From Octadecabacter arcticus 238 (GTDB lineage: Bacteria > Pseudomonadota > Alphaproteobacteria > Rhodobacterales > Rhodobacteraceae): 64,000 nucleotides of DNA. The stretch is from assembly GCF_000155735.2 (NCBI RefSeq), contig NC_020908.1, positions 4,339,501 through 4,403,500 on the forward strand, written 5' to 3'. Below, piece after piece: positions 8,157-41,034 of this stretch. Within the stretch, counting starts at the first letter, position 1, and each line of letters starts with the position of its first letter. The translations under genes were made by a program, and so were the position numbers. The notes under the pieces were generated by a model, which searched no databases, was not told where the DNA came from, and saw nothing but the letters and a program-made list of their open reading frames with translations.

Positions 8157-10124
8157 ATGATGACCGGTTTCTTGATGCTCGCGTTCGTATTTTTAGTGGC
8201 GGGGGTAATTTCCGTTCCAATTGCATCGCGTTTGGGCCTTGGATCGGTGTTGGGTTACCTGATCGCCGGCATCCTGATTAGTCCGGTTTTGGCGCTGTTA
8301 AATGTCGATGTCATCGCGATCCAGCATTTTGCAGAATTTGGCGTCGTGATGATGCTGTTCCTTGTTGGCCTTGAACTTGAACCAAAGATGCTCTGGGCGA
8401 TGCGGGCGCGCCTGATCGGTCTTGGCGGCGGGCAAGTCTTACTGACCACACTGGCCGTAATGGCCGTGGCGTTGGCGTTCGGATTGGTTTGGACCGTCGC
8501 GCTGGCGATTGGTCTGGTCATGGCACTGTCGTCCACCGCCATCGTTTTACAGACCCTGAACGAAAAGGGCCTGATGAAAAGTGACGGAGGCCAGTCAAGC
8601 TTTTCGGTGCTCTTGACCCAAGACATCGCCGTGATCCCGATGCTGGCGTTCATTCCGCTTTTGGCTCTGTCTGGCCTCGGCGATGTTGCTGGCGACATGG
8701 TGACACACGGCGAAACAGCCCATGTTGAAGTCCTCGTCGATAGCCATGGTGACCCCGTCACCACAGGCGATCACGCCAGCCCAGATGGCGATCATAGCGA
8801 AAGCATGAGCCTCGTTGACGGCCTTAACCCATGGCAAACAGCACTTGTCACCATTGGCGCGGTAGCTGCCGTTGTGTTTTGTGGCAGCTTCCTGACCTCG
8901 CCGATCTTTCGGTTTGTCGCGGGCGCGAACCTGCGCGAATTGTTCACTGCGACGGCGCTGATGATGGTTATCGGCATCGCGCTATTGATGTCGCTGGTCG
9001 GGTTATCGCCCGCCCTTGGCACATTCATCGCGGGGGTTGTCCTTGCGAACTCCGAATACCGCCACGAACTGGAATCCGACATCGATCCGTTTAAAGGTCT
9101 ACTACTTGGCCTGTTTTTTATGACCGTCGGCGCAGGGATCAATTTCGGCCTGCTCGGGGCGAACCTGATGCTCATCATCGGCCTCACCCTCGGCCTCATT
9201 GCGCTTAAAATAGCTGTTCTCCTGATCCTTGCGGTGATCTTCAAAATCAGGGGCAGTGATCGGTGGCTGTTCGCCCTTGGCCTCGCGCAAGCTGGTGAAT
9301 TTGGCTTTGTGCTGTTGTCGTTCAACGTCGCCAGCAACGTCATTCCAAGCGCTATCGCGGATCAACTGCTGCTGGTCGTGGCGCTATCTATGCTTCTGAC
9401 CCCTTTGTTATTTATCCTTTATGACCGCGTGATCGTGCCACGTTTCAACACCGATCAGGACCGTGAAACCGATACCATTGACGAAGCAAATCATATCATC
9501 GTCGCAGGTCATGGCCGCGTTGGTGGGCTGGTGCGCCGCATGCTCGAAGGTGCGGGCTACGCGACAACTGTGATCGACTATTCATCCAAGCAAATCGACA
9601 TGATCGCGAAGTTCGGCTTTCGCGCCTATTATGGCGACGCCACGCGGCCCGATCTATTGCATTCCGCTGGCATCGATGAGGCCAAGATCTTCGTCGTCGC
9701 AATTGATGGCAAAGAACAGATCACCGAACTGGTGAAATACGTGCTGCACACCCATCCACATGTGCATGTCATTGCCCGCGCTGTGGATCGTAACCACGTC
9801 TATGATCTGTTTGCCGCGGGGTGTCGTGACATCATCCGCGAGACCTACGACAGCTCCCTTCGGATGGGCAAATCGGCTTTTGAGGCTTTGGGGCATTCGC
9901 CGGAAACCTCCGCGCAAGTCACCGAGGCTTTCAACGCACTGGATCGCCGCTCAATGATCGAAGCGGCTGAACATTACGACCCTGACATTCCAGCCTTCGA
10001 GAACGAGGCGTACATGGCAAAAGTTCGCGACATGTCGACTGGATGGCACGCAGATCTCAATGGCCAGATCAAAGCGATCCTTGCACAGTCGGATGCAAAA
10101 TCAGGGGTCACGAACGAATCGTGA
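8157..10124 (+). CDS. CPA2-family monovalent cation/proton antiporter with RCK domain
   Basis: The 655-residue membrane protein has about a dozen transmembrane segments up to residue 430, in the KefB/KefC/YbaL order. A cytoplasmic TrkA-N nucleotide-binding domain follows at about 450-570, with glycine motif IIVAGHGRVGGLV. It should exchange K+ or Na+ for protons under nucleotide control. Unusual is a polar loop at about residues 181-217, rich in His, Asp, Ser and Gly (VTHGETAHVEVLVDSHGD and GDHASPDGDHSES). It sits between membrane segments and could bind a metal. Two adjacent ATG codons give the start. The gene is alone on its strand, between ftsK and lolA. Confidence 0.9.
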   Translation: MMTGFLMLAFVFLVAGVISVPIASRLGLGSVLGYLIAGILISPVLALLNVDVIAIQHFAEFGVVMMLFLVGLELEPKMLWAMRARLIGLGGGQVLLTTLAVMAVALAFGLVWTVALAIGLVMALSSTAIVLQTLNEKGLMKSDGGQSSFSVLLTQDIAVIPMLAFIPLLALSGLGDVAGDMVTHGETAHVEVLVDSHGDPVTTGDHASPDGDHSESMSLVDGLNPWQTALVTIGAVAAVVFCGSFLTSPIFRFVAGANLRELFTATALMMVIGIALLMSLVGLSPALGTFIAGVVLANSEYRHELESDIDPFKGLLLGLFFMTVGAGINFGLLGANLMLIIGLTLGLIALKIAVLLILAVIFKIRGSDRWLFALGLAQAGEFGFVLLSFNVASNVIPSAIADQLLLVVALSMLLTPLLFILYDRVIVPRFNTDQDRETDTIDEANHIIVAGHGRVGGLVRRMLEGAGYATTVIDYSSKQIDMIAKFGFRAYYGDATRPDLLHSAGIDEAKIFVVAIDGKEQITELVKYVLHTHPHVHVIARAVDRNHVYDLFAAGCRDIIRETYDSSLRMGKSAFEALGHSPETSAQVTEAFNALDRRSMIEAAEHYDPDIPAFENEAYMAKVRDMSTGWHADLNGQIKAILAQSDAKSGVTNES

Positions 10125-10150
10125 CCCCTCGTTAAGTTATTGCTGTCAGA

Positions 10151-13100
10151 TCATTGCTGTCGTTCTGGGATCAAAATCTCGCGTTTGCCAACATGGTTGG
10201 CAGCGCTGACGATATTCTCGTCTTCCATCTGCTCAACCAATCGCGCGGCCTTGTTATACCCGATCGCCAATTTGCGCTGGATGTAGCTGGTCGAGCATTT
10301 GCGATCCTTGGCAACGATTGCGACTGCCGTATCATAAAGCGCATCTTCGCCGTCAGTGTTGCCGCCCAGACCAAGGACCTCGTCGATGCTGCTGGCATTA
10401 TCATCCGCTGGCCCTTCGACCACGCCGCTGAAGTATTCTGGCGGACCATAGGCCTTCAGATAGGTGACAATCTCTTCCACTTCTTCGTCCGAACAGAACG
10501 GCCCATGAACGCGCATGATCTTCGATCCGCCCGCCATATACAGCATATCACCCATACCCAAAAGCTGCTCGGCTCCTTGTTCACCCAGAATGGTGCGCGA
10601 ATCAATTTTGCTGGTCACTTGGAATGAAATGCGGGTTGGGAAGTTGGCCTTGATCGTGCCCGTGATGACATCCACCGATGGACGCTGCGTGGCCATAATC
10701 AAATGGATACCCGACGCCCGCGCCATTTGCGCCAGACGCTGAATACAGGCTTCGATCTCTTTACCGGCAACCATCATCAGGTCAGCCATCTCATCCACGA
10801 TCACCACAATATAGGGCAGGACTTCAGGCTTGAACTCATCAGTTTCAAACACAGGTTCGCCCGTGTCGTCGTCAAATCCCGTCTGCACCGTGCGGCTGAA
10901 CATCTCATCCTTGCCAAGCGCGTCTTTTACGCGACCATTGTAGCCATCAATGTTGCGCACGCCCATTTTGGACATCTTGCGATACCGTTCTTCCATCTCG
11001 CCTACGACCCATTTCAGGGCGACAACCGCCTTCTTGGGGTCAGTCACAACAGGGCTCAGCAAATGCGGGATACCGTCATAAACCGACAGTTCCAGCATTT
11101 TTGGATCAATCATGATCATGCGGCATTCTTCGGGGCTCAGCTTATACAGCAAGCTCAGGATCATTGTGTTGATCGCCACAGATTTACCAGAACCGGTGGT
11201 ACCTGCGATCAGCAAGTGGGGCATCTTGGCAAGGTTGGCGATGATTGGCTCACCGCCAATATTTTTGCCCAGCGCCAATGGCAGCTTCATGTTGCTGTCG
11301 CCAAAATCGCGCGCGCTTAGCATCTCGCGCAGCACGACCATTTCGCGGTTTTCGTTCGGCAGTTCGATCCCGATCACCGTGCGGCCAGGAACCGTGGACA
11401 CACGCGCCGACAAGGCCGACATGGAACGGGCGATATCATCTGCCAAACCAATAACCCGCGACGCTTTCAAGCCCGGCGCGGGTTCAAGTTCGTACATCGT
11501 GACAACCGGACCGGGGCGCACAGACACAATATCGCCTTTGACGCCGTAATCATCGAGCACGTTTTCCAACATGCGTGCATTTTCTTCCAGCGCTTCATCG
11601 CTCAACACATGGCGGGTGATTTCATCCGGCGAAGACAACAGGCTCAGCGGTGGCGTTTCATAGGCCGGACGCTTGTCCTCGAACTTCAACACGGGTTGGG
11701 ATTCGGCCTTGGCCTGGCGCGACGGCTGCACGGATTTGCGGGCCGGATGCTGAACGACCGCTTTGGCCTCCGGCACACGGATCAACGCAGGCGAAAACGA
11801 AGCCGCTGGGGTTTCCATCGGGGCCACGTCAACAGATGCATATTCCATTGCGGGCCGTGTATATTCCTTGACGTCCCCAACCACTGGCTCGGGCTTGGGC
11901 GCGGCCAGATCCAAGGCCGCCTTTTGTTGCGTGTTCAACAACAGCGGTTGTGGCCCAGAATGGCGTCCCATCGTCGGTTCAACGCGGGTTGATTGCGGCA
12001 CTATTCGGCTGGCAATGGCGGCGGTGATCGCGGGGTTCACCCCCGGTTTCGTGGCCACATGCACGTCTTGTGGTTGTCCACTGCGGCTGCGCACGGCGTT
12101 GGCAATACGTGCCGAAATACGATCTGTATCTGCGGCTGGCACGTCGCCCTGCAGGGCGGGTTTTTCAATCAATTCAGGTTCAGGCATCGGATCTGCGCGT
12201 TTCAGCAATGATGCAAAAATGCCTGGTTTTTGCGCTGGCTCCGTAACGCGTGCGGGCGCAGACAATGGCTTCGGGGCACTTGTGCGGGGCGCAGGTGCCT
12301 CAATCGGGTCGAAATCTTCGTAACGGGTCGGCATCGCTGGGTTCGCCCGAACCACGGCTGCAACGCGGGCCGTTTCTTGCGCAACTGACGGCGTCGGGAT
12401 CGCCCGTACCGCAGCCATTTCCGCCTCAACTTCGGCCCTCTCTTGGCGCGACCACTCACGGCGCTCCTGAACTCTGGAATTCAACGCCTGCGCACCCTTA
12501 TAAGACGCCGATGCTGTCTGGCCGAGCAGTTTGAGAATTCCTGAATAGGTGACAATCAAGCCTACCAATAGGAAACGACCCAAACGCCTGATCTCATACA
12601 ATGTGAAGCCCAACGCGAACGCCATCAGCGCCACTACACCAAGGCCCATAACGAAAGACATCAGTTTCACGCTGAACGTCGTGCCAAACGGCAAGACCGT
12701 CAAAAGGATCGACAAGACCATGTCGCCAAAGTGCCCGCCGAGACCAAAACTCTGTTCCCATCCAGCGCCTGTGTTCAATGTCGCGGCATATATCGCCGTC
12801 GCAGCAATCGCGATGGGGGCGAAAATCACCCGCCCGACCGCACGTTCCTGACCGCGGTGCAGCGTAAACCGCAAACCCCACGCCATCAGCACGAGCGGGA
12901 CCATCCAGCTTGCATAGCCAACTATCATAAACAGCGCCGCGGCAAATGACGCACCCGGCCGACCCAGCCAGTTTTGAACGGGAGCGTCTGTCGCGGACAT
13001 GAAATTCGGATCATCGGGCGCGTAAGACCACAGCATCATCGCGACCATCACGCCGACAACAAACAGGCCAATCCCCACAAGCTCACGACCACGTTTTTCA

Positions 13101-24566: not shown

Positions 24567-25220
24567 TCAGGTCGGCACGCGGTCACCAAAAATCGCCGAT
24601 CCAACCCGCACATGCGTCGCGCCATGCGCCACAGCCGTTTCAAAATCACCCGACATGCCCATCGACAGGCCGTTCAACCCGTTGCGCGCCGCGATGTCGC
24701 CCAGCAATTTGAAATGCGGCGAGGGGTCTTCATTGACCGGCGGAATACACATCAACCCAGCAACTGGCAGGTCTAGCGCGACGGATTCGGCAATAAACGC
24801 ATCTGCGCTGGCAGGCAGCACACCGGCCTTCTGCGGCTCTGCTCCCGTGTTCACTTGTATATAAAGGTCAGGGCACGCGCCCATCTCTTGGGCCAAACGC
24901 GCGAACATATGGGCCAGCTTGATGCGATCCAACGTGTGAATAGCCTGCGCCAATTCCATTGCCGCCCGTGCCTTGTTGGTTTGCAGCGGTCCGATGATGT
25001 GCAGTTCAATCCCGTCAAACTGTTCGCGGAACGCAGGCCACTTGTCTGCGGCCTCCTGCACACGGTTTTCACCATAGATGCGGTGGCCCTGTTCTAGAAT
25101 CGCTTGGACCCGTTCGTTGGGCTGTACTTTGGAAACGGCTATCAGTTTGGTTGACCCATCGCTGCGCCCGGCCTTCGCCTCTGCGGCGCTGATGCGTTTC
25201 TTGATCTCTAACAGGGACAC
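24567..25220 (-). CDS. YggS-family pyridoxal phosphate homeostasis protein
   Basis: The 217-residue single-domain PLP-binding protein has the PLP lysine in LIAVSKVQPNERV, the signature YGENRVQEAADKW, the IGPLQTNKARAAM loop and the GLSMGMSGDFETAV phosphate-binding segment. YggS proteins hold PLP without known catalysis and keep vitamin B6 pools balanced. Length and motifs are complete. The 235 bases upstream separate it from the divergent first porin gene. Confidence 0.92.
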   Translation of the reverse strand: MSLLEIKKRISAAEAKAGRSDGSTKLIAVSKVQPNERVQAILEQGHRIYGENRVQEAADKWPAFREQFDGIELHIIGPLQTNKARAAMELAQAIHTLDRIKLAHMFARLAQEMGACPDLYIQVNTGAEPQKAGVLPASADAFIAESVALDLPVAGLMCIPPVNEDPSPHFKLLGDIAARNGLNGLSMGMSGDFETAVAHGATHVRVGSAIFGDRVPT

Positions 25221-25419
25221 GGCAACCTCCTGATTACTTGGTGTGATTCATTTTTAACTGCTAACTAGACTGTTATTGGCCGTCTGCCACGGCCCGAATG
25301 CCGGTATTTGGTGTGTGACCCGTCTGCATCATTTTTGCAGCAGATCCGAAGTAAGTGGGCAATTACCTTGAGTGTATACGCCTTTGGGGGCATAGACCTC
25401 ATCAATGCTAGTTGAACTG

Positions 25420-25436
25420 GCATTCTCGCAGAATGC
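25420..25436 (+). promoter_or_regulatory. Perfect inverted repeat in the porin leader
   Basis: GCATTCT-CGC-AGAATGC forms a perfect 7-bp stem with a three-base loop, 19 bases before the porin start codon and just before its ACGAGGAATT ribosome site. It could be an operator or a 5' mRNA hairpin affecting translation or stability. It is not present upstream of the second porin copy. The role is inferred from position alone. Confidence 0.5.
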
Positions 25437-25455
25437 AAACACGAGGAATTATCTA

Positions 25456-26727
25456 ATGAAAAACATCCTACTCGCAACTACAGCACTCGTCGCCTTCGCT
25501 GGCGCCGCTGCTGCTGACGGTCACACATCTGTTACCTGGTCCGGTAAAGCAACTGCTGGTGTCGCACGTGAAGGCGGAACTGACGCCGTTGCTGCAACAA
25601 TCACTGACGATACCATTGATACAGCACTTGCTGATTATGACGCTGCCGTGACTGCCACAAACACCGCTGCTAATATCGCATTGCCAATAACTGCCGCAAC
25701 CGTATCAAACGTTGCAGGCTTGGTAGCATCGGCAATTGCTGCACTGAATTCAAACTCTGTTTCTGTTCCTGCAAACAAGGCTGCTAACGATACAGACGTA
25801 TTGGTTTATCAAGACGTTCTGAACATCCTTAGCGTCGGCGCTGGGTCTGCTGCAGTTGCCACTGGCGATGGCGAAACATATGCTGAAATCAACGCGACTG
25901 TTACTGGTACTGTTGTAACAGACTTGGGCATCACATTGTCCGCTTCCATGAGCGTAGACGCTGGCACAGGTTACGACTTTGCTGACGACGACGGCTTTGA
26001 CAGTGCAAAAACCAACGGCGTTGGCTTTGACAATGCTGTTTTGGACGCAGGCGTATATGGTGTGTTGACATTCGCACCAAACGATCTTGCACAGCTGGTT
26101 GACGATGACGACGACGCAGCTGCTGACATCAAGTACGTGAACACCTTCGGCCCTGCCACGTTCACAATGGTTGCTGACGTCGACGAAACAGACACAAATG
26201 TAACAGCTGCTAGCGCCGCTGCTGCAACTAACACAGCCACAGCTGCCGACGGTAGCGCAGGTGACGTCGCATACGCTGCCGGCACAGACGCTGTTGCTGC
26301 TGACGTTGCGTGGTCCGCTAAAGTTGAATCAGCAATTGGTGACATGGGAACTGTATACGCAGCATTCGACGAAGAAGGCGGCAACGCATTCGGCGGTACT
26401 GTGGCAATGGAAGGCGTAACCTTCAACTTCTCCAGCAAGCTTGAAGCTCTGGAAGAAGAGGAAGGCACTGATCGTTCAAACACAATCGGCGCATCCTACG
26501 TAATGGGCGCAGTGAGTGTTGGCGCTTCGTGGAACTCAATCGAAGATGACAACCAGTGGTCCATCAACGGTGCATATGCTGCCGGTGCAATCTCCCTCGC
26601 AGCATCCACAAACGAAGGCGAAGAGTGGGAAATCACAAGCGCATACGATCTGGGTTCTAACGCAAGCGTAAAAGCTGGCGTTAACTACACAGATGACGCA
26701 TTCGTAGGCGTTGCATTCAACTTCTAA
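25456..26727 (+). CDS. Outer-membrane porin, first copy (intact)
   Basis: The 423-residue protein has a signal peptide (MKNILLATTALVAFAGAAAA, then DGH) and ends in the outer-membrane sorting pattern with a terminal Phe (FVGVAFNF). The second half shows alternating beta strands such as VSVGASWNSI and SVKAGVNYTDD. The first half has long Ala/Thr/Asp-rich stretches that probably form extended, acidic surface loops. Porins of this type pass small solutes through the outer membrane. Ribosome site ACGAGGAATT precedes the ATG. It heads a duplicated porin-terminator-lipoprotein module; see the second copy at 30838. Confidence 0.88.
   Translation: MKNILLATTALVAFAGAAAADGHTSVTWSGKATAGVAREGGTDAVAATITDDTIDTALADYDAAVTATNTAANIALPITAATVSNVAGLVASAIAALNSNSVSVPANKAANDTDVLVYQDVLNILSVGAGSAAVATGDGETYAEINATVTGTVVTDLGITLSASMSVDAGTGYDFADDDGFDSAKTNGVGFDNAVLDAGVYGVLTFAPNDLAQLVDDDDDAAADIKYVNTFGPATFTMVADVDETDTNVTAASAAAATNTATAADGSAGDVAYAAGTDAVAADVAWSAKVESAIGDMGTVYAAFDEEGGNAFGGTVAMEGVTFNFSSKLEALEEEEGTDRSNTIGASYVMGAVSVGASWNSIEDDNQWSINGAYAAGAISLAASTNEGEEWEITSAYDLGSNASVKAGVNYTDDAFVGVAFNF
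25465..25509 (+). repeat. Signal-peptide-coding repeat, left copy (possible attL)
   Basis: This stretch and 30838-30882 are alike: both start with the shared ATCCTACTCGC and end with a 23-bp identical run (25487-25509 and 30860-30882). Similarity to the left stops abruptly at ATCC. They are direct repeats about 5.37 kb apart that flank the recombinase region. A pair like this is what integration into porin signal-peptide codons would leave. Alternatively they are just the best-conserved part of two duplicated genes. Confidence 0.55.
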
Positions 26728-26750
26728 TAGAAGCTGAACTTACTACAGCG

Positions 26751-26778
26751 AGAGCGGCGCTTCGGCGTCGCTCTTTGC
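26751..26778 (+). terminator. Hairpin terminator after the first porin
   Basis: AGAGCGGCGC (26751-26760) pairs with GCGTCGCTCT (26765-26774) across a TTCG tetraloop, followed by TTTGCGTTT. It lies 24 bases after the porin stop and before the small lipoprotein gene, so the latter may depend on read-through or its own promoter. Confidence 0.8.
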
Positions 26779-26828
26779 GTTTAAAGACTTCAAACTTGCT
26801 GCAAACATCAACATAACTGAGGCAACCA

Positions 26829-26972
26829 ATGAGACATCTTATTATTGTACTGTGCATATCTACGACGCTCACAAGTTGCGGCACAACAGGCGGAATACTC
26901 AACGGCACTGGCACTGTACTTGAAGGTGTGGCAACAGATTTGCGCAGTGTAAGCAGGATGCTGAACCGCTAG
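26829..26972 (+). CDS. Small lipoprotein, first copy (entericidin-like)
   Basis: This 47-residue peptide begins with a lipoprotein signal (MRHLIIVLCISTTLTSCG) whose Cys17 would be acylated. The mature part is only about 30 residues (CGTTGGILNGTGTVLEGVAT then DLRSVSRMLNR), Gly/Thr-rich and then amphipathic. It is clearly paralogous to the gene at 32055, with SCGT, GTG, VLEG and ATD-R shared. Size and style resemble entericidins, an assignment from memory. It lies 102 bases behind the porin stop. TGAGG lies upstream of the ATG. Confidence 0.78.
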   Translation: MRHLIIVLCISTTLTSCGTTGGILNGTGTVLEGVATDLRSVSRMLNR

Positions 26973-27162
26973 CTGCACGGCTACAAGCACCCGTTAACTA
27001 TCATGAAAAACGCAGCCTGAGTGCTTGTTGCGCTATAACTACGATGCACGCTAGTATTTGACTGTGTTAGCTTGTTGTAGTGCGAGCTGTGTGCGCAACA
27101 CGAATACCTTGCGCTGTGACAGCTGCTGTTGCTTGGTACGAGGCAAATTTGAGTTATTGTCA

Positions 27163-28525
27163 AATCTGGTGTTTGAGTATTGTTGGTCATGCGGTGATCT
27201 GGTCGGGGTTTGTGGTTTCGATTCCGTCTTTGAACGTGACGCCTGTGATGACTTTTGCGAGGTAGTCAAAGCCGCGTAGCTTCCTCCAGTTTTGCTCAGC
27301 ACATTGCCCCAGTTTGAACATCATGTGCAGCATGCCATCGCGTGACAGGCAGCCCTTTGAACGCTTGGTACGATGCCGGATCGTCGCGAAGGCCGATTCA
27401 ATTGGATTGCTAGTGCGGATGCTTTGCCAATGCTGCGCCGGGAAGTCGAAGAATGCCATGAGTTCCTCACGATCTTTTTGCAGGCATAGTGTGGCCTTGG
27501 GATATTTGGGTTCGTAGGTTTTGATGAACAGATCGAACGCCTTTTCTGCATCGACTTTGGTCTCGGCCTGCCAGATGTCGTGCAGCGCGGCCTTGGCTTT
27601 TGGCTGAGACAGCTTGGGTAAACAATTGAGCACGTTCATCGTTTTGTGTTGCCAACAGCGTTGATGGCGGGTCTCAGGATAGACTTCGTCCATGGCCGCC
27701 CAAAACCCCATGGCACCGTCCCCGATGGCCAGTTTGGGCGCATTCATGCCTCGGCTTTTGAGGTTAAGCAGAACCTCGCGCCAGCTCTGCGTGGACTCGC
27801 GCACCCCATCCTCAATTGCCAGAAATCGCTTCTTGCCACGGGCAGTTACCCCAATAATAACAGGGGCACAGAGCTTGTCATCCTCGCCCCGAAGGCCGCT
27901 GTGAACGCCGTCGGCCCAGATATAGACGATGGGCTCGTCATCTAACTCAGCGCCTTTCCAAGCCTCGTATTCATTGGCCCAATCGCGTTTTAAACGCGAA
28001 ACCGTATTAGCCGACAAGCCAACGGCATCTGGGCCCAGAAGAACCTTGAGGGCGGGAGCCATCTCGCCGCTGGAGATCCCTTTGAGGTAAAGCCATGGCA
28101 AGGCCGCTTCCAGCGTCTTCGTGCGGCGCACATAGGGCGGCACCAGGGCAGACCGGAATGTCACCGGTGTGCCGTCCTTGGACCGAACCTTTGGAATGCG
28201 CACGCTCACAGGGCCAATGCCCGTTTGAAACGGGCGGGCCGGATGATGTCCATTACGCACGACTGCCGCGTGACCGGCATCGGTGCGTAAGCCGGTAAAT
28301 TGCGCCAAATAACTGACAAGCTCAGCCTCAACTGCTGTCGCGATCAATTGTTGTGCTCCCGTTTTCAGCAACTCCGTCAACGCGTCCGTCATCTCGTCTC
28401 GACGCGCAAAATCAACAATGTTAGTAGTTCCCATGGTGGTGTATCTCCTTTGGTTGGGCTGCTGTCTTCCAACAACAATTCAACCAGATACGCCGCCAAC
28501 CTTCAAACCACTCAAACACCAGATT
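27163..28525 (-). mobile_element. IS256-family insertion sequence, no target duplication
   Basis: The ends carry the inverted repeat AATCTGGTGTTTGAGT, perfect over 16 bp on both sides, enclosing one intact transposase gene (about 1363 bp). The flanking eight bases differ (TATTGTCA left, CAGTCATA right), so no duplication is seen. It cuts the recombinase gene after its catalytic arginine motif, and no recombinase C-terminus can be found on the left side. A deletion starting at the IS end would explain both facts. Confidence 0.88.
27187..28434 (-). CDS. IS256-family transposase (Mutator type)
   Basis: The intact 415-residue transposase shows the DDE core: first Asp in VYIWADGVHSG, second in LAIGDGAMGFW, and Glu in SNPIESAFATIRHRTKRSKG, together with the C/H region RHQRCWQHKTMNVL typical of IS256. 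The N-terminal part (VSYLAQFTGLRTD, VRNGHHPARPFQTGIGPV) is also normal. Nothing interrupts it, so the element may still be active. It is transcribed leftward toward the first porin module. Confidence 0.94.
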   Translation of the reverse strand: MGTTNIVDFARRDEMTDALTELLKTGAQQLIATAVEAELVSYLAQFTGLRTDAGHAAVVRNGHHPARPFQTGIGPVSVRIPKVRSKDGTPVTFRSALVPPYVRRTKTLEAALPWLYLKGISSGEMAPALKVLLGPDAVGLSANTVSRLKRDWANEYEAWKGAELDDEPIVYIWADGVHSGLRGEDDKLCAPVIIGVTARGKKRFLAIEDGVRESTQSWREVLLNLKSRGMNAPKLAIGDGAMGFWAAMDEVYPETRHQRCWQHKTMNVLNCLPKLSQPKAKAALHDIWQAETKVDAEKAFDLFIKTYEPKYPKATLCLQKDREELMAFFDFPAQHWQSIRTSNPIESAFATIRHRTKRSKGCLSRDGMLHMMFKLGQCAEQNWRKLRGFDYLAKVITGVTFKDGIETTNPDQITA

Positions 28526-28827
28526 CAGTCATAGCTCCTTTGCGACTGCGACCACTTTTGCTGAGTGCGATCAACAACTCGCTGCTGTTGGCGTCAATGT
28601 CTTTCCATTTTGCAAGCCGCAACTCGCTCTTTCTAGTTCCAGTAAGCAACAACAGCTTGATAAACAGATGAAGGTAAGGGTGCGTGCTTTGCTTGCACGC
28701 GCTCAGCAGCTTGCTGATCTCACTGCGTGTCAAAAAACGCTGTATATGATCTCCAACCCCTCCGTGCCAATAAGCGTGAGACAATTGACTGGCTAAAGTT
28801 TACACTTGAGGGCGTAGGAGAAGAACC

Positions 28828-29310
28828 ATGGTTATGCCTTCACAATCACCACTTTCGCCAGATGCTGGATCTGGAGCCGTTTTGGCCCCGACGTCGCCTC
28901 CCCGCGTTGTTAATGCGCCGTTGGCTCCCACAGCGGAACTGACGAGCATCCCGAAGCGACGCAACTTCACAGCCAAATACAAACTGCGCATTCTGGATGA
29001 GACGGACCAAGTGGCAGACACTGGCGGGGTTTCCGTCATTCTACGGCGGGAGGGGCTTTATTCCTCTGCACTGACCGATTGGCGCCGTGCGCGGGCGGCC
29101 GGCACATTGGGTGCATTGCAGCCAATGCGCCGTGGCCCACAAAAGGCACCTGCCAATCCATTGCAAGCTGAGCTGGCCAAGGCCAACCGTGAGGTGACAG
29201 CCTTGCGGCGCCGTCTGGATCAGGCGGAAGCCATCATTGCCATCCAAAAAAAAGTGGCGGGACTTCTGGACGAGATGGAGCAGACGCAAGAGCGCAGCGG
29301 CAAATCATGA
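28828..29310 (+). CDS. IS3-family transposase OrfA (DNA-binding)
   Basis: The 160-residue protein has a helix-turn-helix ([40 protein letters not shown]) followed by a leucine-zipper-like coiled coil ([20 protein letters not shown]) used for OrfA/OrfAB dimerisation. A Pro/Ala-rich leader of about 40 residues precedes it. GGAG lies upstream of the ATG. It overlaps OrfB by four bases (ATGA), so OrfB is probably made by coupling rather than only by frameshifting. Confidence 0.88.
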
Positions 29311-30320
29311 TGGCCGTCGCGATTGCATTGCCCACCGGCAGCGGCTTGACCTCGGCTGTCTGCGCCGCGCTATCATTATCGCGCGCGAGCGTTCTTCGAC
29401 AGCGTGCGGCGCTGACGGCACCACCACGCACACGCCCACCGCGCGCAGCGTCTTCGCGGGCTCTGCCGGAAAGGGAAAGAGACCAGGTATTGCACCACCT
29501 GCGCGAACCCCGCTTTGCGGATCAGACGCCCACAGAGGTCTTTGCCACCTTGCTGGATGAAGGCACCTATCTGTGTTCAATCCGCACGATGTATCGGATA
29601 TTGGCCGCGCAGGGCGAAGTTGGCGAACGCCGCCGACAGCGCACACATCCCGTCTATCAAAAGCCTGAACTTCTAGCTGAAGCCCCCAATCAGGTCTGGT
29701 CTTGGGACATCACCAAGCTGAGGGGCCCGGTGAAATGGTCCTACTTCTATCTCTATGTCATCCTCGACATCTTCAGCCGCCGCGTTGTTGGCTGGCGCGT
29801 CGAGCACGCGGAGAGCGCCAGCCAGTTCAAAGAGCTGTTCATCGACGCGATGGAAAAACACGAGGTTCCACGCGATCAGCTGACATTGCATGCAGATCGC
29901 GGTGGGCCCATGAAGGCAAAGACGACAGCCCTGATGCTGGTTGATCTTGGTGTGCTCAAGTCCCACAGTCGGCCCCACACCTCAAACGACAACCCGTTCT
30001 CCGAAGCCCACTTCAAAACACTGAAATATCAGCCAGAGTTCCCCAAGAACTTTGAAACCATCGAGCAGGCTCGCGCATTCTGCCGCAGGTTCTTTGCATG
30101 GTATAACCAAGACCATCATCACGCCGGGATTGGTCTGATGACGCCCAACCAAATCCATTTTGGGCAGGCCCAAGAAATCTACACCGCGCGACAAGCAACA
30201 CTAGACGCGGCATTCCTCGCCACGCCCGAACGCTTCGTACACAAACCACCAAAACCGCCTCAAATCCCGACCGCCGTCTGGATCAACCCACCAAAACCAA
30301 CCGAAGAAACCCAAGCCTAA
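29307..30320 (+). CDS. IS3-family transposase OrfB (DDE integrase core)
   Basis: The 337-residue protein has the retroviral-integrase-like core: Asp in [14 protein letters not shown], Asp in [11 protein letters not shown], and Glu in [18 protein letters not shown], with the usual [19 protein letters not shown] after it. The N-terminal HTH_21-like part precedes the core ([20 protein letters not shown]). All catalytic residues are present and no stop interrupts it. It is the catalytic subunit of the IS3 element interrupting the recombinase gene. Confidence 0.92.
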
Positions 30321-30738
30321 AGTCCAAAAGCCACTGTCTCAAAGTCGTTGACACGTTCCGAACAGGCAACTTGCGTATCGCAGCGCCTTTTAATGCGTTG
30401 CGCTCCAAATAGTTCCAATGCACACCAATATTAAGGATACGGTTCAGCATTGCGGCGTGCTTGTTCACAGTGCTTGCTTTGTATCCATCTTCTATCTGCT
30501 GCAGCATCCAAGAATCAATGTCTTCGCTTGTAATATCAGTTAACAGCTTTGCACCAAGCGTAGGTCGCAAGTGCTTGTTGAACAGATAGAGGTCATGCGT
30601 GCTGCGGCGCTTGGTGGCTTTGACGAAGGCATAATACTTGAGGTCAAAGAACGCTTCGAGCGTGAGCGCTGCACGTTGCTTGGTGGTTGTAATATCGGTG
30701 CGTCTTGGATGACGAAACAGCTTAGACAGTGATCGCAA

Positions 30739-30837
30739 ATAACCCCCCTCTTCACTGCACTGCTAATGTCAGCTGCTTGCGAGAACGAGTTATATCTGCA
30801 TTAAAGCAGTCAAAAAGACATCGACATCTTAAAGTGG
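30739..30837. other. Putative element end between integrase and second porin (attR side)
   Basis: These 99 bases separate the integrase start from the point where porin sequence begins. They contain GACATC twice in a row near 30817-30828, then CTTAAAGTGG directly before the porin-like ATCCTACTCGC. No porin promoter, ribosome site or start codon is present; in the porin frame the first upstream stop is TAA at 30802-30804. If the integration idea holds, this is the right end of the element. Confidence 0.45.
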
Positions 30838-30882
30838 ATCCTACTCGCTTCCACAGCAATCGTCGCCTTCGCTGGCGCCGCT
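30838..30882 (+). repeat. Signal-peptide-coding repeat, right copy (possible attR)
   Basis: Direct-repeat partner of 25465-25509. ATCCTACTCGC is followed by ACAGCA and then the identical 23-bp run at 30860-30882. Recombination between the two copies would join the intact promoter and start of the first porin to this porin body in frame. Confidence 0.55.
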
Positions 30883-31947
30883 TTCGCTGACGGCCACTCT
30901 GCCGTATCCTTCGCTGGTGACGCCTCACTGGGTTACAACGACGACATCTCAGACGGTTTCTTCTGGGACTCCAAAATCATCGCCGGCTTCGCATCTACAC
31001 TCGACAATGGCCTGACAGCATCAGCGTCTTTCGACATTAACATCGCTAACGATGATGATGCCGATGTTGTTGATTTTGACGATTACACCTTGTCCCTGAC
31101 ATCCGAAATGGGTGGTTTGTACTACGGTGTGACTGCATACGCAGCAGAATCCCTGTGGCAGTCCGCTGGTGACATGGCTGCTGACGGCTTCTCCGAAGCC
31201 GACAACGACATTGTTCTGCGCGGCGAACTGACATTCGGTTCTGTCACTGCTGCAGTGTCTACCGCAATCGAAGACCATGCTGGTACCGAAGCTGACGACG
31301 ATGCGACACAACTGTCCGTTGCTGCGGTTGCAGATCTCGGCAACTACACTGTTGGTTTAGCGTACCAGGAAGAGTCCGGCTTGTTCGGTGCTGCTCCTGC
31401 TGTAGCTGGCGACTACAACATGAACGAAGTTTTGGGTCTGTTTGCAAGCACAACGGTTGCAGGCTTTGACTTAACTCTTGCTTATGCTGAACAAACAGTG
31501 CTCGGAGGCGGTATGTCTCGTTCTTCTGTGGGCCTCGAAGTTGGCTACACAATGGGCGACATCACTTTGGGTGCGTACTACGTAGCTGAAGATAACAACA
31601 CAGCAGACGAATCATACGGTGTAAGTGTTGGTTATGCATCCGGTCCAATCGCACTTGCAGCATACTTCAACACAGATCTGGACTCAGATGAGTTCGCTGT
31701 GCAGGGTTCCTACGACTTGGGCAACGGTCTTGTTATGACTGCTGGCTCAATCGACGGTGACAGCACCACAGACAACGATTTTGCGGCCTTCATCGTTGCA
31801 GATTATGACCTTGGTGGCGGTGCATCTGTGATGGCGTCCTTCGCTGATGCCAACAATGTAGGTACATTGACTTCTGATGACATCGACACTTTCGGTGGCT
31901 ATGAGCTGAAGGCTGGTACAACTATTGAGCTTTCCTTCGCGTTCTAA
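30838..31947 (+). pseudogene. Outer-membrane porin, second copy, lacking a start codon
   Basis: From 30838 the frame reads ILLASTAIVAFAGAAFADGH, a porin signal peptide without its first residues, and continues uninterrupted for 370 codons. The end is LKAGTTIELSFAF with the terminal Phe of outer-membrane proteins. Upstream in this frame there is no ATG, GTG or TTG before a stop at 30802. The first internal ATG (31090) lies after the signal peptide. The gene is therefore silent unless joined to another 5' end. It shares the signal-peptide region with the porin at 25456 and is followed by the same kind of terminator and lipoprotein gene. Its body differs clearly from the first copy and lacks the long Ala-rich loops. 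Confidence 0.85.
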
Positions 31948-31973
31948 TTGAACCGAATGACACTCTAAGGCTT

Positions 31974-32006
31974 GGGCGGTTCCTTCGGGGGCCGCCCTTT
32001 TCTTTT
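31974..32006 (+). terminator. Hairpin terminator after the second porin
   Basis: GGGCGGTTCC (31974-31983) pairs with GGGGCCGCCC (31988-31997) over a TTCG loop, followed by TTTTCTTTT. Its position, 27 bases after the stop, mirrors the terminator of the first porin. Confidence 0.9.
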
Positions 32007-32054
32007 GCTCAAATAAAATGTTAATCTATGGCAAATGATGTGCCGGAGGTATTG

Positions 32055-32198
32055 ATGAAGAAACTTATCCTTTTCTTATCCATAGCTATGTTCATGACAA
32101 GTTGCGGCACAGCCGAGGGCGTTATGTACGGCACTGGAAGCGTTCTCGAAGGAATGGCGACAGACTTTCGCGGCCTTGGTGATCTGTTCACACGCTGA
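32055..32198 (+). CDS. Small lipoprotein, second copy (entericidin-like)
   Basis: A 47-residue lipoprotein: signal MKKLILFLSIAMFMTSCG with Cys17, then CGTAEGVMYGTGSVLEGMAT followed by DFRGLGDLFTR. It has exactly the length of the paralogue at 26829, and both sit just over 100 bases behind a porin stop. A good CGGAGG ribosome site precedes the ATG. The repeated pairing with porins suggests a functional link at the outer membrane, which is inference. The family name is tentative. Confidence 0.8.
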   Translation: MKKLILFLSIAMFMTSCGTAEGVMYGTGSVLEGMATDFRGLGDLFTR

Positions 32199-32354
32199 CC
32201 GCCGCCGCATTGGTCATCAGCACAAAATCCATCTGCTGTTCGCTTCGCCAACGGTGCCTTTGTTTTTTCTGAGGTTCGGGTGTGTTCACTGGCCTTGTGA
32301 CATCTGCCCCCCTTCGCTACACAATTGCTAAACAAACGACGGGAAGATCGACAC

Positions 32355-32840
32355 GTGACCGGATTTACAAAACTTATTCGCCTAACCTTTGGAATCGGCC
32401 TTGTGGCCACACTGTCCGCCTGTGGCGGTTCAGGCAGCCTTAGCAGCAACCCATTCGGGTCAATCGGCAGCTTGGGCGGCATATTTGGTGGCGGCGGCAC
32501 AACCGCCGCAACACAGCAAGCAGCGCGAACCGGTGGTGTCGAAAACGTCGCGGTGAACCGCTACCTTTGGGCCGCATCCCTTGATGTTCTGAGCTTCTTA
32601 CCGATTGAATCCGTTGATCCTTTTACCGGTATTATCGTCATGGGCTACGGCACCCCGCCTGGTGGCAGCCGCAGTTACCGCGCGACGATCTTCATCACTG
32701 ATCCAGCCCTTGATGCGCGGTCTTTGGATGTCGCCTTGCTGACCCGCTCCGGTCCCGCCGCGGCGGAAACCACCCGCGCCATTGAGGACGCAATTCTGTC
32801 GCGTGCGCGTCAGTTGCGCATTGCAGACGGTGCTCTATAA
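32355..32840 (+). CDS. DUF3576 lipoprotein
   Basis: The 161-residue protein has a lipoprotein signal peptide (MTGFTKLIRLTFGIGLVATL, SACGG) and a Gly/Ser-rich linker (GSLSSNPFGSIGSLGGIFGG). The conserved domain follows: NRYLWAASLDVLSFLPIESV, GGSRSYRATIFITDPALDAR, IEDAILSRARQLR. This is the DUF3576 family, widespread just upstream of leuS in alphaproteobacteria; its function is unknown. The GTG at 32355, with GGGAAG upstream, fits the signal peptide better than the TTG at 32325. Confidence 0.85.
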   Translation: MTGFTKLIRLTFGIGLVATLSACGGSGSLSSNPFGSIGSLGGIFGGGGTTAATQQAARTGGVENVAVNRYLWAASLDVLSFLPIESVDPFTGIIVMGYGTPPGGSRSYRATIFITDPALDARSLDVALLTRSGPAAAETTRAIEDAILSRARQLRIADGAL

Positions 32841-32881
32841 GAACTGGGCGCTGTAGAACGGCCCCAAACCCATAGTATTTC

Positions 32882-32913
32882 AACGCCGGGTCCAGCACCC
32901 GGCGTTTGCTTTT
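32882..32913 (+). terminator. Terminator between DUF3576 gene and leuS
   Basis: AACGCCGGGT (32882-32891) and ACCCGGCGTT (32897-32906) form a perfect 10-bp stem with a five-base loop, followed by TTGCTTTT. It separates the lipoprotein gene from leuS, though leuS begins only 14 bases after it. Confidence 0.85.
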
Positions 32914-32926
32914 CAAGGACTAAAAC

Positions 32927-35482
32927 ATGGCTCCCTACACCCCGTCAGAGATCGAAGCCAAATGGCAAGCCGCTTGGGACAAAGCGGAGACATTCAAGAC
33001 CACACGGAGCGATGACAAGCCCAAGTACTACGTGCTTGAGATGTTCCCCTATCCGTCAGGCCGTATCCACATCGGCCACGTACGTAACTACACGATGGGC
33101 GACGTAATCGCGCGTTATAAACTGGCAACGGGCCACAACGTCCTACACCCCATGGGCTTTGACGCCTTCGGGATGCCGGCTGAAAACGCGGCGATGCAAA
33201 CCGGCATTCACCCCAAGGATTACACCTACCAGAATATCGACGACATGGTCGCGCAGATGAAACCGCTTGGCCTTGGTATTGATTGGTCCCGCATGTTCGC
33301 GACCTGTGATCCCGAATACTACGGCCAACAGCAGTCGCTGTTTATCGACATGCTGGATGCGGGTATGATTGATCGCAAAAATGCGACCGTGAACTGGGAT
33401 CCGGTCGACATGACCGTTCTGGCCAACGAACAGGTGATCGACGGCAAAGGCTGGCGATCCGGCGCCGAGGTCGAACGCAAAGACCTGACACAATGGTTCT
33501 TCAAAATCTCCGATTACGCAGATGAGCTGCTTGAAGCGCTGGACGGTTTGGACAATTGGCCCGCCAAGGTCAAACTGATGCAGGCAAATTGGATCGGTAA
33601 ATCGCGCGGGCTGCAGTTTGCGTTCTCGCTTGTTGAAAACGTCGGCGGACGTGACCGGATTGAGGTTTACACAACCCGTCCCGATACGCTCATGGGCGCG
33701 TCGTTTGTCGGCATTTCGCCCGACCACCCGATCGCCAAAGAGATGGAACAGGTTAACCCTGACCTCGCCGCGTTTAACGCAGAATGCCGCAAGGGTGGCA
33801 CGACCGCCGAAGCCTTGGAAAAAGCCGAAAAGATGGGTTTTGACACGGGCCTGCGCGTGCGCCACCCGTTTGATACATCGTGGGAACTGCCCGTCTACGT
33901 CGCCAACTTCATCATGATGGACTATGGCACCGGCGCGATCTTTGGCTGCCCCGCACACGACCAGCGCGACTTTGACTTCGCCAAGAAGTACGACCTCCCG
34001 ATTATCCCGACTTTCCTCCCGTCCGAAGATAGCGACCCCGAACTGACAGAAGCCTTCGTGCCCACCAAAACCGATATGGTTCACTGGACAGCACCGTTCG
34101 CGTGGGACCCCGCAACCAACGGTGCAGACGCAATCAACGCCGCGATTGATTTCTGTGAAGCCAACGGTGTAGGCCAAGGTGTGACCAAGTTCCGACTGCG
34201 CGATTGGGGCTTGTCGCGCCAACGCTACTGGGGCGCGCCGATCCCTGTTGTGCATTGCGACGACTGTGGCGTGGTGCCGGAGAAGAAGGAAAACCTCCCC
34301 GTTGAACTGCCCTACGATGTGTCCTTCGACATTCCCGGCAACCCGCTTGATCGCCACCCCACATGGCGCAACACGCCTTGCCCTGCGTGCGGCAAGGCTT
34401 CGCTTCGCGAAACCGACACGATGGACACGTTTGTGGATTCCAGCTGGTATTTCGCGCGCTTCACAGCGCCCCACGCACTGACACCAACGCAGGCCGAAGA
34501 CGCCGCCTATTGGATGAACGTCGATCAATACATCGGCGGTATTGAACACGCGATCCTGCACCTGCTGTATTCGCGTTTCTTTGCCCGCGCGATGCACAAG
34601 ACGGGCCATTTGCCCGCGACCGCCATCGAACCGTTTGATGCGTTGTTCACCCAAGGCATGGTGACGCACGCAATTTTCAAGACCGAATCTGCAGATGGTC
34701 GTCCAGTCTATCACTACCCAGAAGCCGTTGACCTACGCGACGGCGGGGGCTTCCTGAAAGATGGCACTCAAGTCGACATCATCCCCTCCGCGAAAATGTC
34801 GAAATCCAAAAACAATGTGGTCGACCCCGTGGCAATCATCGAACAATACGGCGCGGATACCGCCCGCTGGTTCGTCTTGTCCGACAGCCCACCCGAACGC
34901 GACGTCGAATGGACAGCGTCAGGCGCGGAAGCGACATTCAAACACCTGTCACGCGTCCACCGCATTGCCTGTGATATTGCTGAAAACACTGACGCGGCGA
35001 ACGACCAAGACGAAGCCCTGCTGCGCGACATGCACAAAGCGATCTTTGAAGTCACGCAGGGTGTGGAATCGTTTGGGTTCAACGCTTCAATCGCGAAACT
35101 CTATGGGTTCACGAACGCGATTGCCAAATCCAAGGCAGGCAGCGACGCAAAGCGCACAGCAATGAAGACCCTCGCTCAATTGATGTCCCCGATGACACCA
35201 CACTTGGCCGAAGACATTTGGGAAATGTTGGGAGGAGCAGCACTGATCGCCAACGCGCCTTGGCCCGTCGCGATTGAATCGATGATGATTGAGGAGACGA
35301 TCACCATGCCTATTCAAATCAATGGCAAACGTCGGTCAGAAATCGCCGTGCCAAAAGACATGGGCAAGGAAGAGGTTGAAAAACTCGCGCTCGCGGACAA
35401 GGCTGTGATTAAGGCTTTGGAGGGCGGACAACCCAAAAAGCTTATCGTTGTACCAGGCCGGATCATCAATGTTGTCATCTGA
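32927..35482 (+). CDS. leuS: Leucyl-tRNA synthetase
   Basis: The 851-residue class I synthetase has the HIGH motif in [16 protein letters not shown] and the KMSKS motif in [14 protein letters not shown], a CP1 editing domain ([31 protein letters not shown]) and a zinc-ribbon-like segment ([12 protein letters not shown] ... CPACGKAS). It charges tRNA-Leu. AAGGAC precedes the ATG. It is the first gene of the leuS-lptE-holA operon. Lengths and motifs are complete. Confidence 0.97.
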
Positions 35483-39845: not shown

Positions 39846-41034
39846 CTCCCGCGCCTGAATTGACCTGAGGTTTTCCCCTCAAATCACTTTGTATTCCTTG
39901 AGCGATATGACGCGGAAGTTGTCGGTGACGGTGTCGCGAAACTCTGGCCATTTTTCTGGCAGGGTCTTGCGGAAGAAGTCGAAAATGGCCTCTGTGAATT
40001 GGTTGAACGTTGCATAGTGCCGATTGTGGGTGACCCATTTGTGCATAACACCCCAAAGACGCTCGATCGGGTTGAGGTGCGGGGCATATGCTGGCAAGAA
40101 ATGCAACTTCACCCGACGTTCTGGGCTGTCCAGCCATGGCTGTAGTATCTTGGCATGATGATAGCGGGCATTGTCGACAAAGACGTGGATGGCCGTCTTG
40201 GTTTGGTTGTTGCGTTCCAACTTTTCCAGCATCTGTCGGGTTGTCTGGGCATTGATCTTCTCGCCTTCCACAAAGGTGAACTGGAAAGTCTCAAGGTCAA
40301 GCGCGCCCTGAATGTTGAGCCGCTTGCGCCCTGATGTCGCCTTCAGGGCCGTCTTTTGTCCCTTGGGGAACCAACCATGGGCGGGGCGGCTCTGGTGTTC
40401 GGGGTGGACAGCGTCCGAAAAGACAACCATCTCATCTGCGGCCAACCCGTTCATCAGGGCCTCATATTTGGCAATAAACGCAGCCTGCTTGGCTTCATCG
40501 GCCTGTGCAGGCAGTAATTGTGGTTTCTTATACGCGAACCCCAGGCGGCGCATCAGCTTGGCGGCTCCCGACGTGCTGTAGTTTTGGTCGCACTCGGCTA
40601 GAACATAGGCACAGACCTCATCGGCATTGCGGGCAGGCTGCGCGGTGAAATGGGCTCTCACCGCCTGCTCTTGCACGACGGACAAATGACCCTGACGCTG
40701 GCTGTAGTCCTTCAGACCGAAAAACGATAGTCCCACACCGGCAAAGGCAAATCGCCACTCCGTCAAAACTGTCGGGCCAATATCCAAAATCCGGCAAACC
40801 GTTCCGGCGTCTTCTCCTGCGTCCAAAAGAAGAAACGCGCGCGCCCGTTTCCAAACAAGGGCGTCAACTTTGCGGCGGCGGCAAAGCGCTTCAAGTGCTA
40901 TGCGCTGCTCGTCGGATAAGGAGACTGTTTTGTATTGCTTGCTCATAAACTCAAAATACAGACTGAACCGCCTTTGGCCATGCGACGAAGTGAATCGCAG
41001 GCCCAAAATCGTCAGGTCAATTCAGGCGCAGGAG
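39846..41034 (-). mobile_element. IS630-family insertion sequence flanked by TA
   Basis: The 1189-bp element has inverted ends (CTCCCGCGCCTGAATTGACC left, GGTCAATTCAGGCGCAGGAG right, one mismatch) and is flanked by TA on both sides, the duplication expected for IS630/Tc1-type transposition. It carries one intact transposase. It sits in the promoter region of the yjbH remnant, only 20 bp from an IS66 element. Confidence 0.93.
39879..40946 (-). CDS. IS630-family transposase
   Basis: The 355-residue transposase has an N-terminal helix-turn-helix part (LDIGPTVLTEWRFAFAGVGL) and the DDE core: Asp in MVVFSDAVHPEHQS, Asp in IHVFVDNARYHHAKI, and Glu in YAPHLNPIERLWGVMHK. It is uninterrupted. The ATG at 40946 (MSKQYKTVSLS) is preferred over an upstream opening at 41006. 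Probably active. Confidence 0.93.
   Translation of the reverse strand: MSKQYKTVSLSDEQRIALEALCRRRKVDALVWKRARAFLLLDAGEDAGTVCRILDIGPTVLTEWRFAFAGVGLSFFGLKDYSQRQGHLSVVQEQAVRAHFTAQPARNADEVCAYVLAECDQNYSTSGAAKLMRRLGFAYKKPQLLPAQADEAKQAAFIAKYEALMNGLAADEMVVFSDAVHPEHQSRPAHGWFPKGQKTALKATSGRKRLNIQGALDLETFQFTFVEGEKINAQTTRQMLEKLERNNQTKTAIHVFVDNARYHHAKILQPWLDSPERRVKLHFLPAYAPHLNPIERLWGVMHKWVTHNRHYATFNQFTEAIFDFFRKTLPEKWPEFRDTVTDNFRVISLKEYKVI

What the first reader, a model, noticed from the sequence alone, without database searches (positions are those of the whole stretch)
25456..32198. Possible porin-swapping element: a recombinase between two porin modules, inserted in signal-peptide codons
Two porin-terminator-small-lipoprotein modules lie in the same direction. 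The left porin is complete. The right porin has a full body but no start codon, and its porin-like sequence begins abruptly at ATCCTACTCGC (30838), which is also present in the left porin at codon 4. A tyrosine recombinase starts about 100 bp from that junction. All this fits an element whose circular form carried a promoterless porin body plus lipoprotein plus integrase. Integration in the signal-peptide codons would give the incoming porin the resident promoter, ribosome site and first codons, and silence the old porin downstream. Such last-in, first-expressed capture resembles an integron but exchanges a major surface protein. Junctions are visible; the mechanism is inference. A plain duplication followed by an unrelated insertion is the main alternative.
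Basis: partly seen in the sequence, partly recalled or inferred. Interest (0 to 1): 0.85.

Follow-up and report, generated by a model that had tools for sequence, protein, structure and literature searches.

The report
Recombinase that swaps the bacterial porin
Some marine relatives of Rhodobacter appear to use a dedicated DNA-recombining enzyme to change which version of an outer-membrane pore protein they make, by joining a different protein body to one shared start; the copy in this window is a broken, locked example.

Summary
In 8 of 8 fetched congeners a single porin with its own start lies between yggS and leuS, without integrase. In the window that gene is split at codon 4 (25465 | 30838) by a 5373-bp insertion carrying a foreign porin body, a lipoprotein and a tyrosine recombinase. 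The foreign porin took the resident promoter and start; the resident body lies start-less downstream. The recombinase is dead here: two transposons cut it and its catalytic end is missing. Relatives occur in 29 other genomes (28 intact), and in all 30 genomes it lies beside a porin. In 27 of the 30 I found an expression porin plus at least one start-less porin whose homology mostly begins at codons 4-5. Same-contig pairs are inverted (11) or direct (5). Best reading: the recombinase switches the expressed porin by recombination inside signal-peptide codons, by inversion or by insertion. This is inferred from sequence; recombination itself was not observed.

The parts
24567..25220 (-). yggS-type gene (Ala_racemase_N), conserved left neighbour
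   Evidence: PF01168, 53.8 bits; same neighbour in relatives
25221..25455 (+). resident promoter region and ribosome site (expression site)
   Evidence: aligns with the same region of four congeners through into the signal peptide; promoter itself not tested
25456..26727 (+). left porin: resident codons 1-3 joined to a foreign porin body; the expressed copy
25465..25475 (+). core shared with the right copy, ATCCTACTCGC (left junction)
26829..26972 (+). small lipoprotein of the left module (47 aa)
   Evidence: reading frame (no family); 26750-27131 matches the elements of G552 and, in part, G117
27163..28525 (-). Mutator/IS256-type transposon; transposase 27187-28434
   Evidence: PF00872; 16-bp perfect inverted ends (I6)
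28526..28784 (-). tyrosine recombinase, middle fragment
   Evidence: PF00589 positions 2-71 of 172
28785..30372 (+). IS3-type transposon (ends approximate); ORFs 28828-29310 and 29307-30320
   Evidence: PF00665 rve; ends judged from the break in the recombinase frame
30373..30738 (-). tyrosine recombinase, N-terminal fragment
30739..30837 (.). recombinase-side end of the insertion
   Evidence: 30361-30957 matches the corresponding ends in G552 and G117 (aligned by eye)
30838..31947 (+). right porin: resident body without start codon
30838..30848 (+). core shared with the left copy (right junction)
32055..32198 (+). small lipoprotein of the right module (47 aa)
   Evidence: reading frame (no family)
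32325..32840 (+). DUF3576 gene, conserved right neighbour
   Evidence: PF12100
32927..35482 (+). leuS, conserved right neighbour
   Evidence: PF13603 and others

Best explanation
This is the locked remnant of a porin-switching system found in scattered members of the Rhodobacteraceae. Each carrier genome has one expression site: promoter, ribosome site and the first codons ATG-AAA-AAx of a porin. A dedicated tyrosine recombinase recombines a core at about codons 4-8 of the signal-peptide sequence (often TCTTCGCTAC) with the same core at the front of a start-less second porin. Where the two cores are inverted, recombination inverts the DNA between them and puts the other body under the promoter. 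Where they are direct, the arrangement is that of an insertion of [new body + recombinase], which turns the newcomer on and leaves the resident start-less downstream. Shown from sequence: the junctions, the association, the empty sites, the split of the ancestral locus at the core, and low dN/dS of start-less copies. Inferred: that this enzyme does it, that it is reversible, and that only the porin at the expression site is made. In the window two transposons then destroyed the recombinase, locking the foreign porin on.
For: Recombinase beside a porin in 31 of 31 places in 30 genomes, against 0 of 75 more distant integrases. Exact junction at codons 3-5 in 13 of 15 pairs; core 18 of 315 differences within genomes against 82.4 on average when partners are shuffled, minimum 37 in 20,000. 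Window insertion resolved to codon 4 in three of four congeners. G395 locus split in G235 at 13 nt into the gene. In 8 genomes the yggS-linked body is expressed, in 8 others it is the start-less one, and both states occur in genus g369. 20 of 20 uncut start-less bodies are open; dN/dS 0.08-0.45 in seven active/start-less pairs. Catalytic residues invariant in 18 intact relatives. Six of 58 cores lie within 200 bp of a contig end, 0.6 expected.
Against: No recombination was observed and no reads were available. Codons 13-25 are also more alike within genomes than when shuffled (129 of 585 against 266.9), so gene conversion may contribute. In 8 of 31 places the recombinase is not at the front of the start-less copy. 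Within genus g369 the DNA around the recombinase differs between species, and the expected exchange of flanks between G650 and five unswitched species was not seen. In G144 the second porin has its own ribosome site and ATG; in G224 the shared tract runs back to codon 2; in G030 the second copy has an in-frame ATG at about codon 5 behind a possible ribosome site. No second porin was found in G129. dS is near or above 1 in several pairs. Some start-less pairs have higher ratios (0.50 for G011/G650).
Confidence: 0.78

Rival explanations
1. A selfish integrative element uses the porin gene as its attachment site and carries a replacement porin body only so that its host keeps a working porin. Silencing of the old body is a side effect and there is no switching.
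For: Five direct arrangements look like simple insertion: window, G117, G552, G144, G467. The elements of G117, G552 and G289 hold a second small recombinase, and that of G117 a DUF6626 protein. Carriage is patchy: 18 of 393 genera, 1 of 7 Marivivens-genus genomes, 1 of 19 in the window's genus. The recombinase sits at different places within genus g369.
Against: Eleven same-contig pairs are inverted, not direct. Start-less bodies stay open with low dN/dS. Recombinase identity tracks LeuS identity, never more than 2 points above it in 19 genomes. No close relative appeared on phage records (best about 31%) or among the 80 best viral contigs (at most 34%).
Confidence: 0.15
2. Ordinary RecA-dependent recombination or gene conversion between porin paralogues made the joints, and the integrase is a bystander.
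For: Some shared tracts are long (74 bp G117, 89 bp G174, 69 bp G144), similarity extends beyond the core, and about 60 bp at the 3' end of porins is alike between copies.
Against: The left limit of identity is nearly the same in 13 of 15 pairs and the tract can be only 8-11 bp (G045, G289b, window). The recombinase is beside the porin in 31 of 31 places, and distant integrases are not.
Confidence: 0.05
3. A plain tandem duplication of the porin module in the window followed by unrelated insertions.
For: Two similar modules lie in tandem.
Against: The bodies are only about 26% identical and the left one is not the resident type. Congeners have one gene whose two parts map to both sides of the insertion. 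The same junction recurs in other genera.
Confidence: 0.02

Closest known systems
Shufflon-type inversion of SusC/SusD outer-membrane genes by Tsr0667 in Bacteroides fragilis (passages in PMC4747536, and PMC11852207)
   Same: Tyrosine-type recombinase, outer-membrane transport proteins, several bodies sharing promoters by inversion.
   Different: Different phylum and protein family; there one invertase serves several clusters and other regions, here the recombinase is tied to one porin locus, and the core lies in signal-peptide codons; insertion-type capture is seen as well.
R64 shufflon and Rci (passages in PMC11852207)
   Same: Sites with a conserved core and right arm and a variable left arm, as in the sites here; inversion is the main outcome.
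   Different: Rci varies the far end of PilV (recalled); here nearly the whole mature protein after the signal peptide changes. Rci has an extra C-terminal domain; the recombinases here end soon after the catalytic tyrosine.
Omp1 phase and antigenic variation of Dichelobacter nodosus (Moses et al. 1995; seen only as a reference entry in PMC5903667; details recalled)
   Same: Outer-membrane protein genes switched by several site-specific inversions at a shared front part.
   Different: Different organism and protein; the relation of the enzymes was not tested.
vsa switching in Mycoplasma pulmonis (named in PMC11852207; details recalled)
   Same: One expression site and silent genes without a front part.
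   Different: Surface lipoproteins of a wall-less bacterium; no insertion-type capture known to me.
Integron cassette capture (recalled)
   Same: A promoterless gene gains expression by insertion next to a resident promoter.
   Different: The recombinase lies within the inserted DNA with the porin body, and the site lies inside a coding sequence; attC sites were not searched for.

Membership tests
Tyrosine recombinase family (PF00589) | Catalytic Arg ... HxxR ... His ... Tyr | tested here: met
   Invariant in all 18 intact relatives aligned; PF00589 in the window's middle fragment and in G552. The window's own catalytic C-part is missing.
Expression-site switching by site-specific inversion | One expression site and start-less silent bodies with a shared front sequence | tested here: met
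   found in 27 of 30 carrier genomes.
Expression-site switching by site-specific inversion | Inverted orientation of the recombining sites | tested here: inconclusive
   11 same-contig pairs inverted, 5 direct (window among the direct); 13 genomes have the copies on different contigs and the other genomes are incomplete.
Expression-site switching by site-specific inversion | Reversible switching in a clonal population | not testable with these tools
   No reads. Indirect only: sister species in both states and contig ends at cores, 6 of 58.
Rci-type shufflon invertases | Extra C-terminal domain after the catalytic domain | tested here: not met
   The 18 recombinases mostly end some 20-30 residues after the catalytic tyrosine; this feature of Rci is.
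Integrative element with a protein-coding attachment site | Insertion at a fixed site, with an empty site in relatives | tested here: met
   Window against four congeners; single porin in 8 of 8 fetched congeners.
Integrative element with a protein-coding attachment site | Free circular form and transfer between lineages | tested here: inconclusive
   Circle not testable; recombinase tracks LeuS in 19 genomes.
Integron | attC-bearing cassettes and an IntI with its extra motif | not tested
   No attC search was run; the profile matched the IntI4 structure at 57.9 bits, behind XerA, HP1 and XerD.

The most novel reading that the evidence does not exclude
A clade-specific recombinase of the Rhodobacteraceae is dedicated to one porin locus. 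It uses the codons of the porin's own signal peptide as crossover site, toggles the expressed pore protein by chromosome inversions from about 6 kb to several hundred kb, and can also let a foreign porin body take over the resident start. It would thus be both a phase switch and a capture device for a likely phage receptor and nutrient gate.
Probability: 0.5. Interest if true: 0.9.

Novelty: new variant of a known kind. Interest (0 to 1): 0.82.

Why it matters
Porins are common phage receptors and a main entry route for nutrients (general knowledge). A heritable, reversible porin swap would let clonal marine populations hedge against phages. It could also explain why porin bodies differ sharply between G369 and G564, whose flanking DNA is 84-90% identical. 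Five searches of the open library for a porin switch or porin-linked recombinase in this group showed none in their listings, and one inversion survey reports no positive among its four alphaproteobacterial samples (PMC5903667, passage). Carriers include cultured strains with names, such as Marivivens donghaensis KCTC 42776, so it can be tested directly with long reads, junction PCR and phage challenge.

Tried and rejected
Chance similarity and simple duplication: rejected by the congeners and by recurrence across genera. Phage origin: no close relative among phage records or the 80 best viral contigs. A 37%-identical integrase on plasmids (31 records matched, 30 of them Pseudosulfitobacter; I opened one) has no annotated porin within 9 kb and served as an outgroup. 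The Alcaligenaceae relative L043 (37%) has no hit of the porin profile and sits among other genes; G515 (245 bits) has none on its 13.5-kb contig and lies beside an RTX-repeat protein. Strain-level comparison through plasmids failed: the right porin has no plasmid match. Contig ends at the core: my first count was 7 of 58, but one position was 222 bp from the end; corrected to 6 of 58 against 0.6 expected. Positions were typed by hand from earlier outputs, a few are approximate, and repeats alone can cause some breaks. In genus g369 I expected the flank of G650's expressed porin to match the flank of the start-less porin of G369, G564, G651, G654 or G649; it did not. No structure was predicted.
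Full report
WHAT IS IN THE WINDOW. Between a yggS-type gene (24567-25220, minus) and DUF3576-leuS (32325-35482) lie two porin + lipoprotein modules in the same direction. The left porin (25456-26727) has a ribosome site and ATG-AAA-AAC. The right body (30838-31947) has no in-frame ATG, GTG or TTG and begins abruptly at ATCCTACTCGC, which also starts codon 4 of the left porin. The recombinase reads leftward from about 30738. It is dead: N-part 30373-30738 and middle part 28526-28784 are separated by an IS3-type transposon, the remainder gives way to a Mutator/IS256-type transposon with 16-bp perfect ends, and no catalytic C-terminal part was found next to it. The N-part matches only itself in the whole genome.

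THE EMPTY SITE. In the window's genus 1 of 19 genomes, the window itself, has a match to the N-part. I fetched the locus of eight of the other 18 (G516, G145, G594, G644, G658, G659, G664, G669). In all eight, one porin with its own start lies between yggS and DUF3576-leuS. Four were aligned with the window. The left part of the window matches through the promoter into the signal peptide (to 25517-25553). The right part resumes at 30838, 30838 and 30837 in three of the four, which in L168 is 9 nt into the gene, codon 4; in the fourth (L170) the first match on that side begins at 31090. The right, start-less body is the resident type (45-48% to the four) and the left one is foreign (22-30%). 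So the insertion is 25465-30837 and the incoming porin took the resident start.

THE RECOMBINASE FAMILY. The N-part found relatives in 18 of 394 family genomes (18 of 393 genera; own included), at 19 places. All 19 lie beside a porin reading frame. A profile of 18 intact relatives (A1), with invariant catalytic residues, showed a gap in 390 order genomes, where at most six candidates per genome were scored: 13 places at 399 bits or more in 12 genomes, then G515 at 245 bits, G467 at 224 bits (with a second fragment on another contig), and the other listed matches at 164 or less. This added G412, G564, G640, G552, G513 and the fragmentary G467, all beside a porin (G467's second fragment has none on its 5.2-kb contig). 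G515 has none on its 13.5-kb contig. A genus search found 9 of 13 genomes of g369 positive, adding six, all beside a porin. Total: 30 genomes, 31 places, the window and G467 being broken. The other 75, at most 37% identical and eight of them with names of this bacterial family, have none found within the up to 10 kb held, by a porin profile built from this group. Equal contig lengths identify G117 as Marivivens donghaensis KCTC 42776 and G650 as LSUCC0031.

ONE EXPRESSION SITE, START-LESS COPIES. A fixed pattern for the expression start met a porin in 16 of 18 genomes, once each except twice in G144; the other matches were unrelated, and it missed the window's own porin and G384. G384's was found later. 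In 27 of the 30 carriers I found an expression porin and at least one start-less copy. The exceptions are G144 (second copy with its own start), G129 (no second copy) and G654 (no expression copy found). In G030 the second copy has an in-frame ATG at about codon 5 that might serve as a start. Fifteen pairs from 14 genomes were compared. In 13 the exact shared tract begins between the last base of codon 3 and codon 5; in G224 it runs back to codon 2 and in G144 past the start codon. Tracts range from 8 bp (G045) to 89 bp (G174). The 21-bp core differs at 18 of 315 positions within genomes; with shuffled partners the mean is 82.4 and the minimum 37 in 20,000 shuffles. Codons 13-25 are also closer within genomes (129 of 585 against 266.9). 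Where both bodies could be compared they are 23-84% identical. Of 22 start-less copies, two are cut by contig ends; the other 20 are open throughout (277-370 codons). None has a start at the normal place with a ribosome-site match; one (G369) has a possible one further upstream. dN/dS is 0.16 between the start-less copies of G369 and G564, 0.08-0.45 for seven active/start-less pairs, and 0.50 between the start-less copies of G011 and G650; two active pairs of congeners give 0.27 and the active pair of G369/G564 gives 0.58. Low ratios are hard to explain if these copies were permanently silent, although past swaps could have kept each copy expressed for part of the time, and dS is near or above 1 in several pairs.

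BREAKPOINT EVIDENCE. In carriers of the GTTCTCTTCGC type the ancestral order is leuS - DUF3576 | promoter - porin - yggS - ribA. G395, G645 and G656, without recombinase match, have this order with one full porin. In eight carriers (G024, G154, G369, G564, G649, G651, G384, G224) the expressed porin is still followed by yggS within about 5 kb. In eight others (G011, G235, G259, G289, G513, G174, G650, G655) it is the start-less porin that is followed by yggS, while the promoter has another body. Eight carriers could not be placed for lack of sequence or markers, G144 and G467 are direct, and the window, G117, G552 and G045 have the other gene order. Against G395, the left part of G235's expression locus matches to 104 nt into the gene, and its start-less locus matches from 13 nt into the gene onward. 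Both states occur within genus g369. Where both copies lie on one contig, 11 pairs are inverted (G045, G174, G148, G224, G154, G289 twice, G369, G384, G513, G412), from about 6 kb to 0.76 Mb apart the shorter way round if G369's single contig is circular. Five are direct (window, G117, G552, G144, G467).

DIFFICULTIES. In seven places the recombinase lies downstream of a porin in the same direction (G129, G030, G154, G174, G024, G384, G148) and in one it faces the porin (G259). In genus g369 it sits at different chromosomal places, so a two-site inversion is not the whole story. Bodies are also replaced between sister species with conserved flanks. In a porin-profile search of 14 genomes, the four without integrase had one full-length match each (three plus a fragment). 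Of the ten carriers, eight had two copies, G129 one, and in the window only the right body was matched.

MOBILITY. Recombinase and LeuS identities correlate (Spearman 0.445; 14 of 2000 permutations as high) and the former never exceeds the latter by more than 2 points in 19 genomes, so recent transfer between genera is not seen. Elements of G117, G552 and G289, and the relative G515, hold a second, about 197-residue catalytic-domain-only recombinase; that of G117 also a DUF6626 protein. Parts of the window insertion match those of G552 and G117.

MECHANISM: STATUS OF STEPS. Shown by sequence: insertion at codon 4, resident and foreign bodies, recurrence, association, split at the core. Inferred: that the adjacent recombinase acts within the shared core, that inverted pairs toggle, that start-less copies are silent, and that phages or nutrients select. 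The sites look asymmetric (right side conserved, left variable), as described for Rci's sfx sites (PMC11852207, passage).

LITERATURE. Searches looked for a porin switch or porin-linked recombinase in this group; I saw listings with starts of abstracts, none on it. Searches looked for analogues. Passages were read in PMC5903667, PMC4747536 and PMC11852207. No paper was read whole.

Noticed in passing
L020:13352-13951, L158:12358-12951, L160:6600-7193, L027:6643-7233: A second, about 197-residue tyrosine recombinase made of little more than the catalytic domain accompanies the main one in several elements; its role (helper, directionality, own sites) is unknown.
   Followed up: partly
window 26829-26972 and 32055-32198: Each porin is followed by a terminator-like stretch and a similar 47-residue lipoprotein without Pfam family; porin and lipoprotein may act as a module.
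   Followed up: no
G289: L027, L037 and L122: One genome holds two separate recombinase + start-less porin units, both inverted relative to a single expression site, so a three-way switch is possible.
   Followed up: partly
L030:4769-5911 and 9993-11072: In G144 both porins have ribosome site and start, identical over 69 bp, as if the front part had been copied onto the second gene.
   Followed up: no
L036, L156, L163, L164, L124: About 60 bp around the porin stop codon are 84-92% alike between active and start-less copies of sister species; a possible second exchange point.
   Followed up: no
L160:541-4398 and 4580-5767: The G515 relative of the recombinase (245 bits) starts beside a divergent 1286-residue RTX-repeat protein instead of a porin.
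   Followed up: partly
window 39879-41006: A further transposase (DDE_3, HTH_33), in line with a genome rich in insertion sequences.
   Followed up: no
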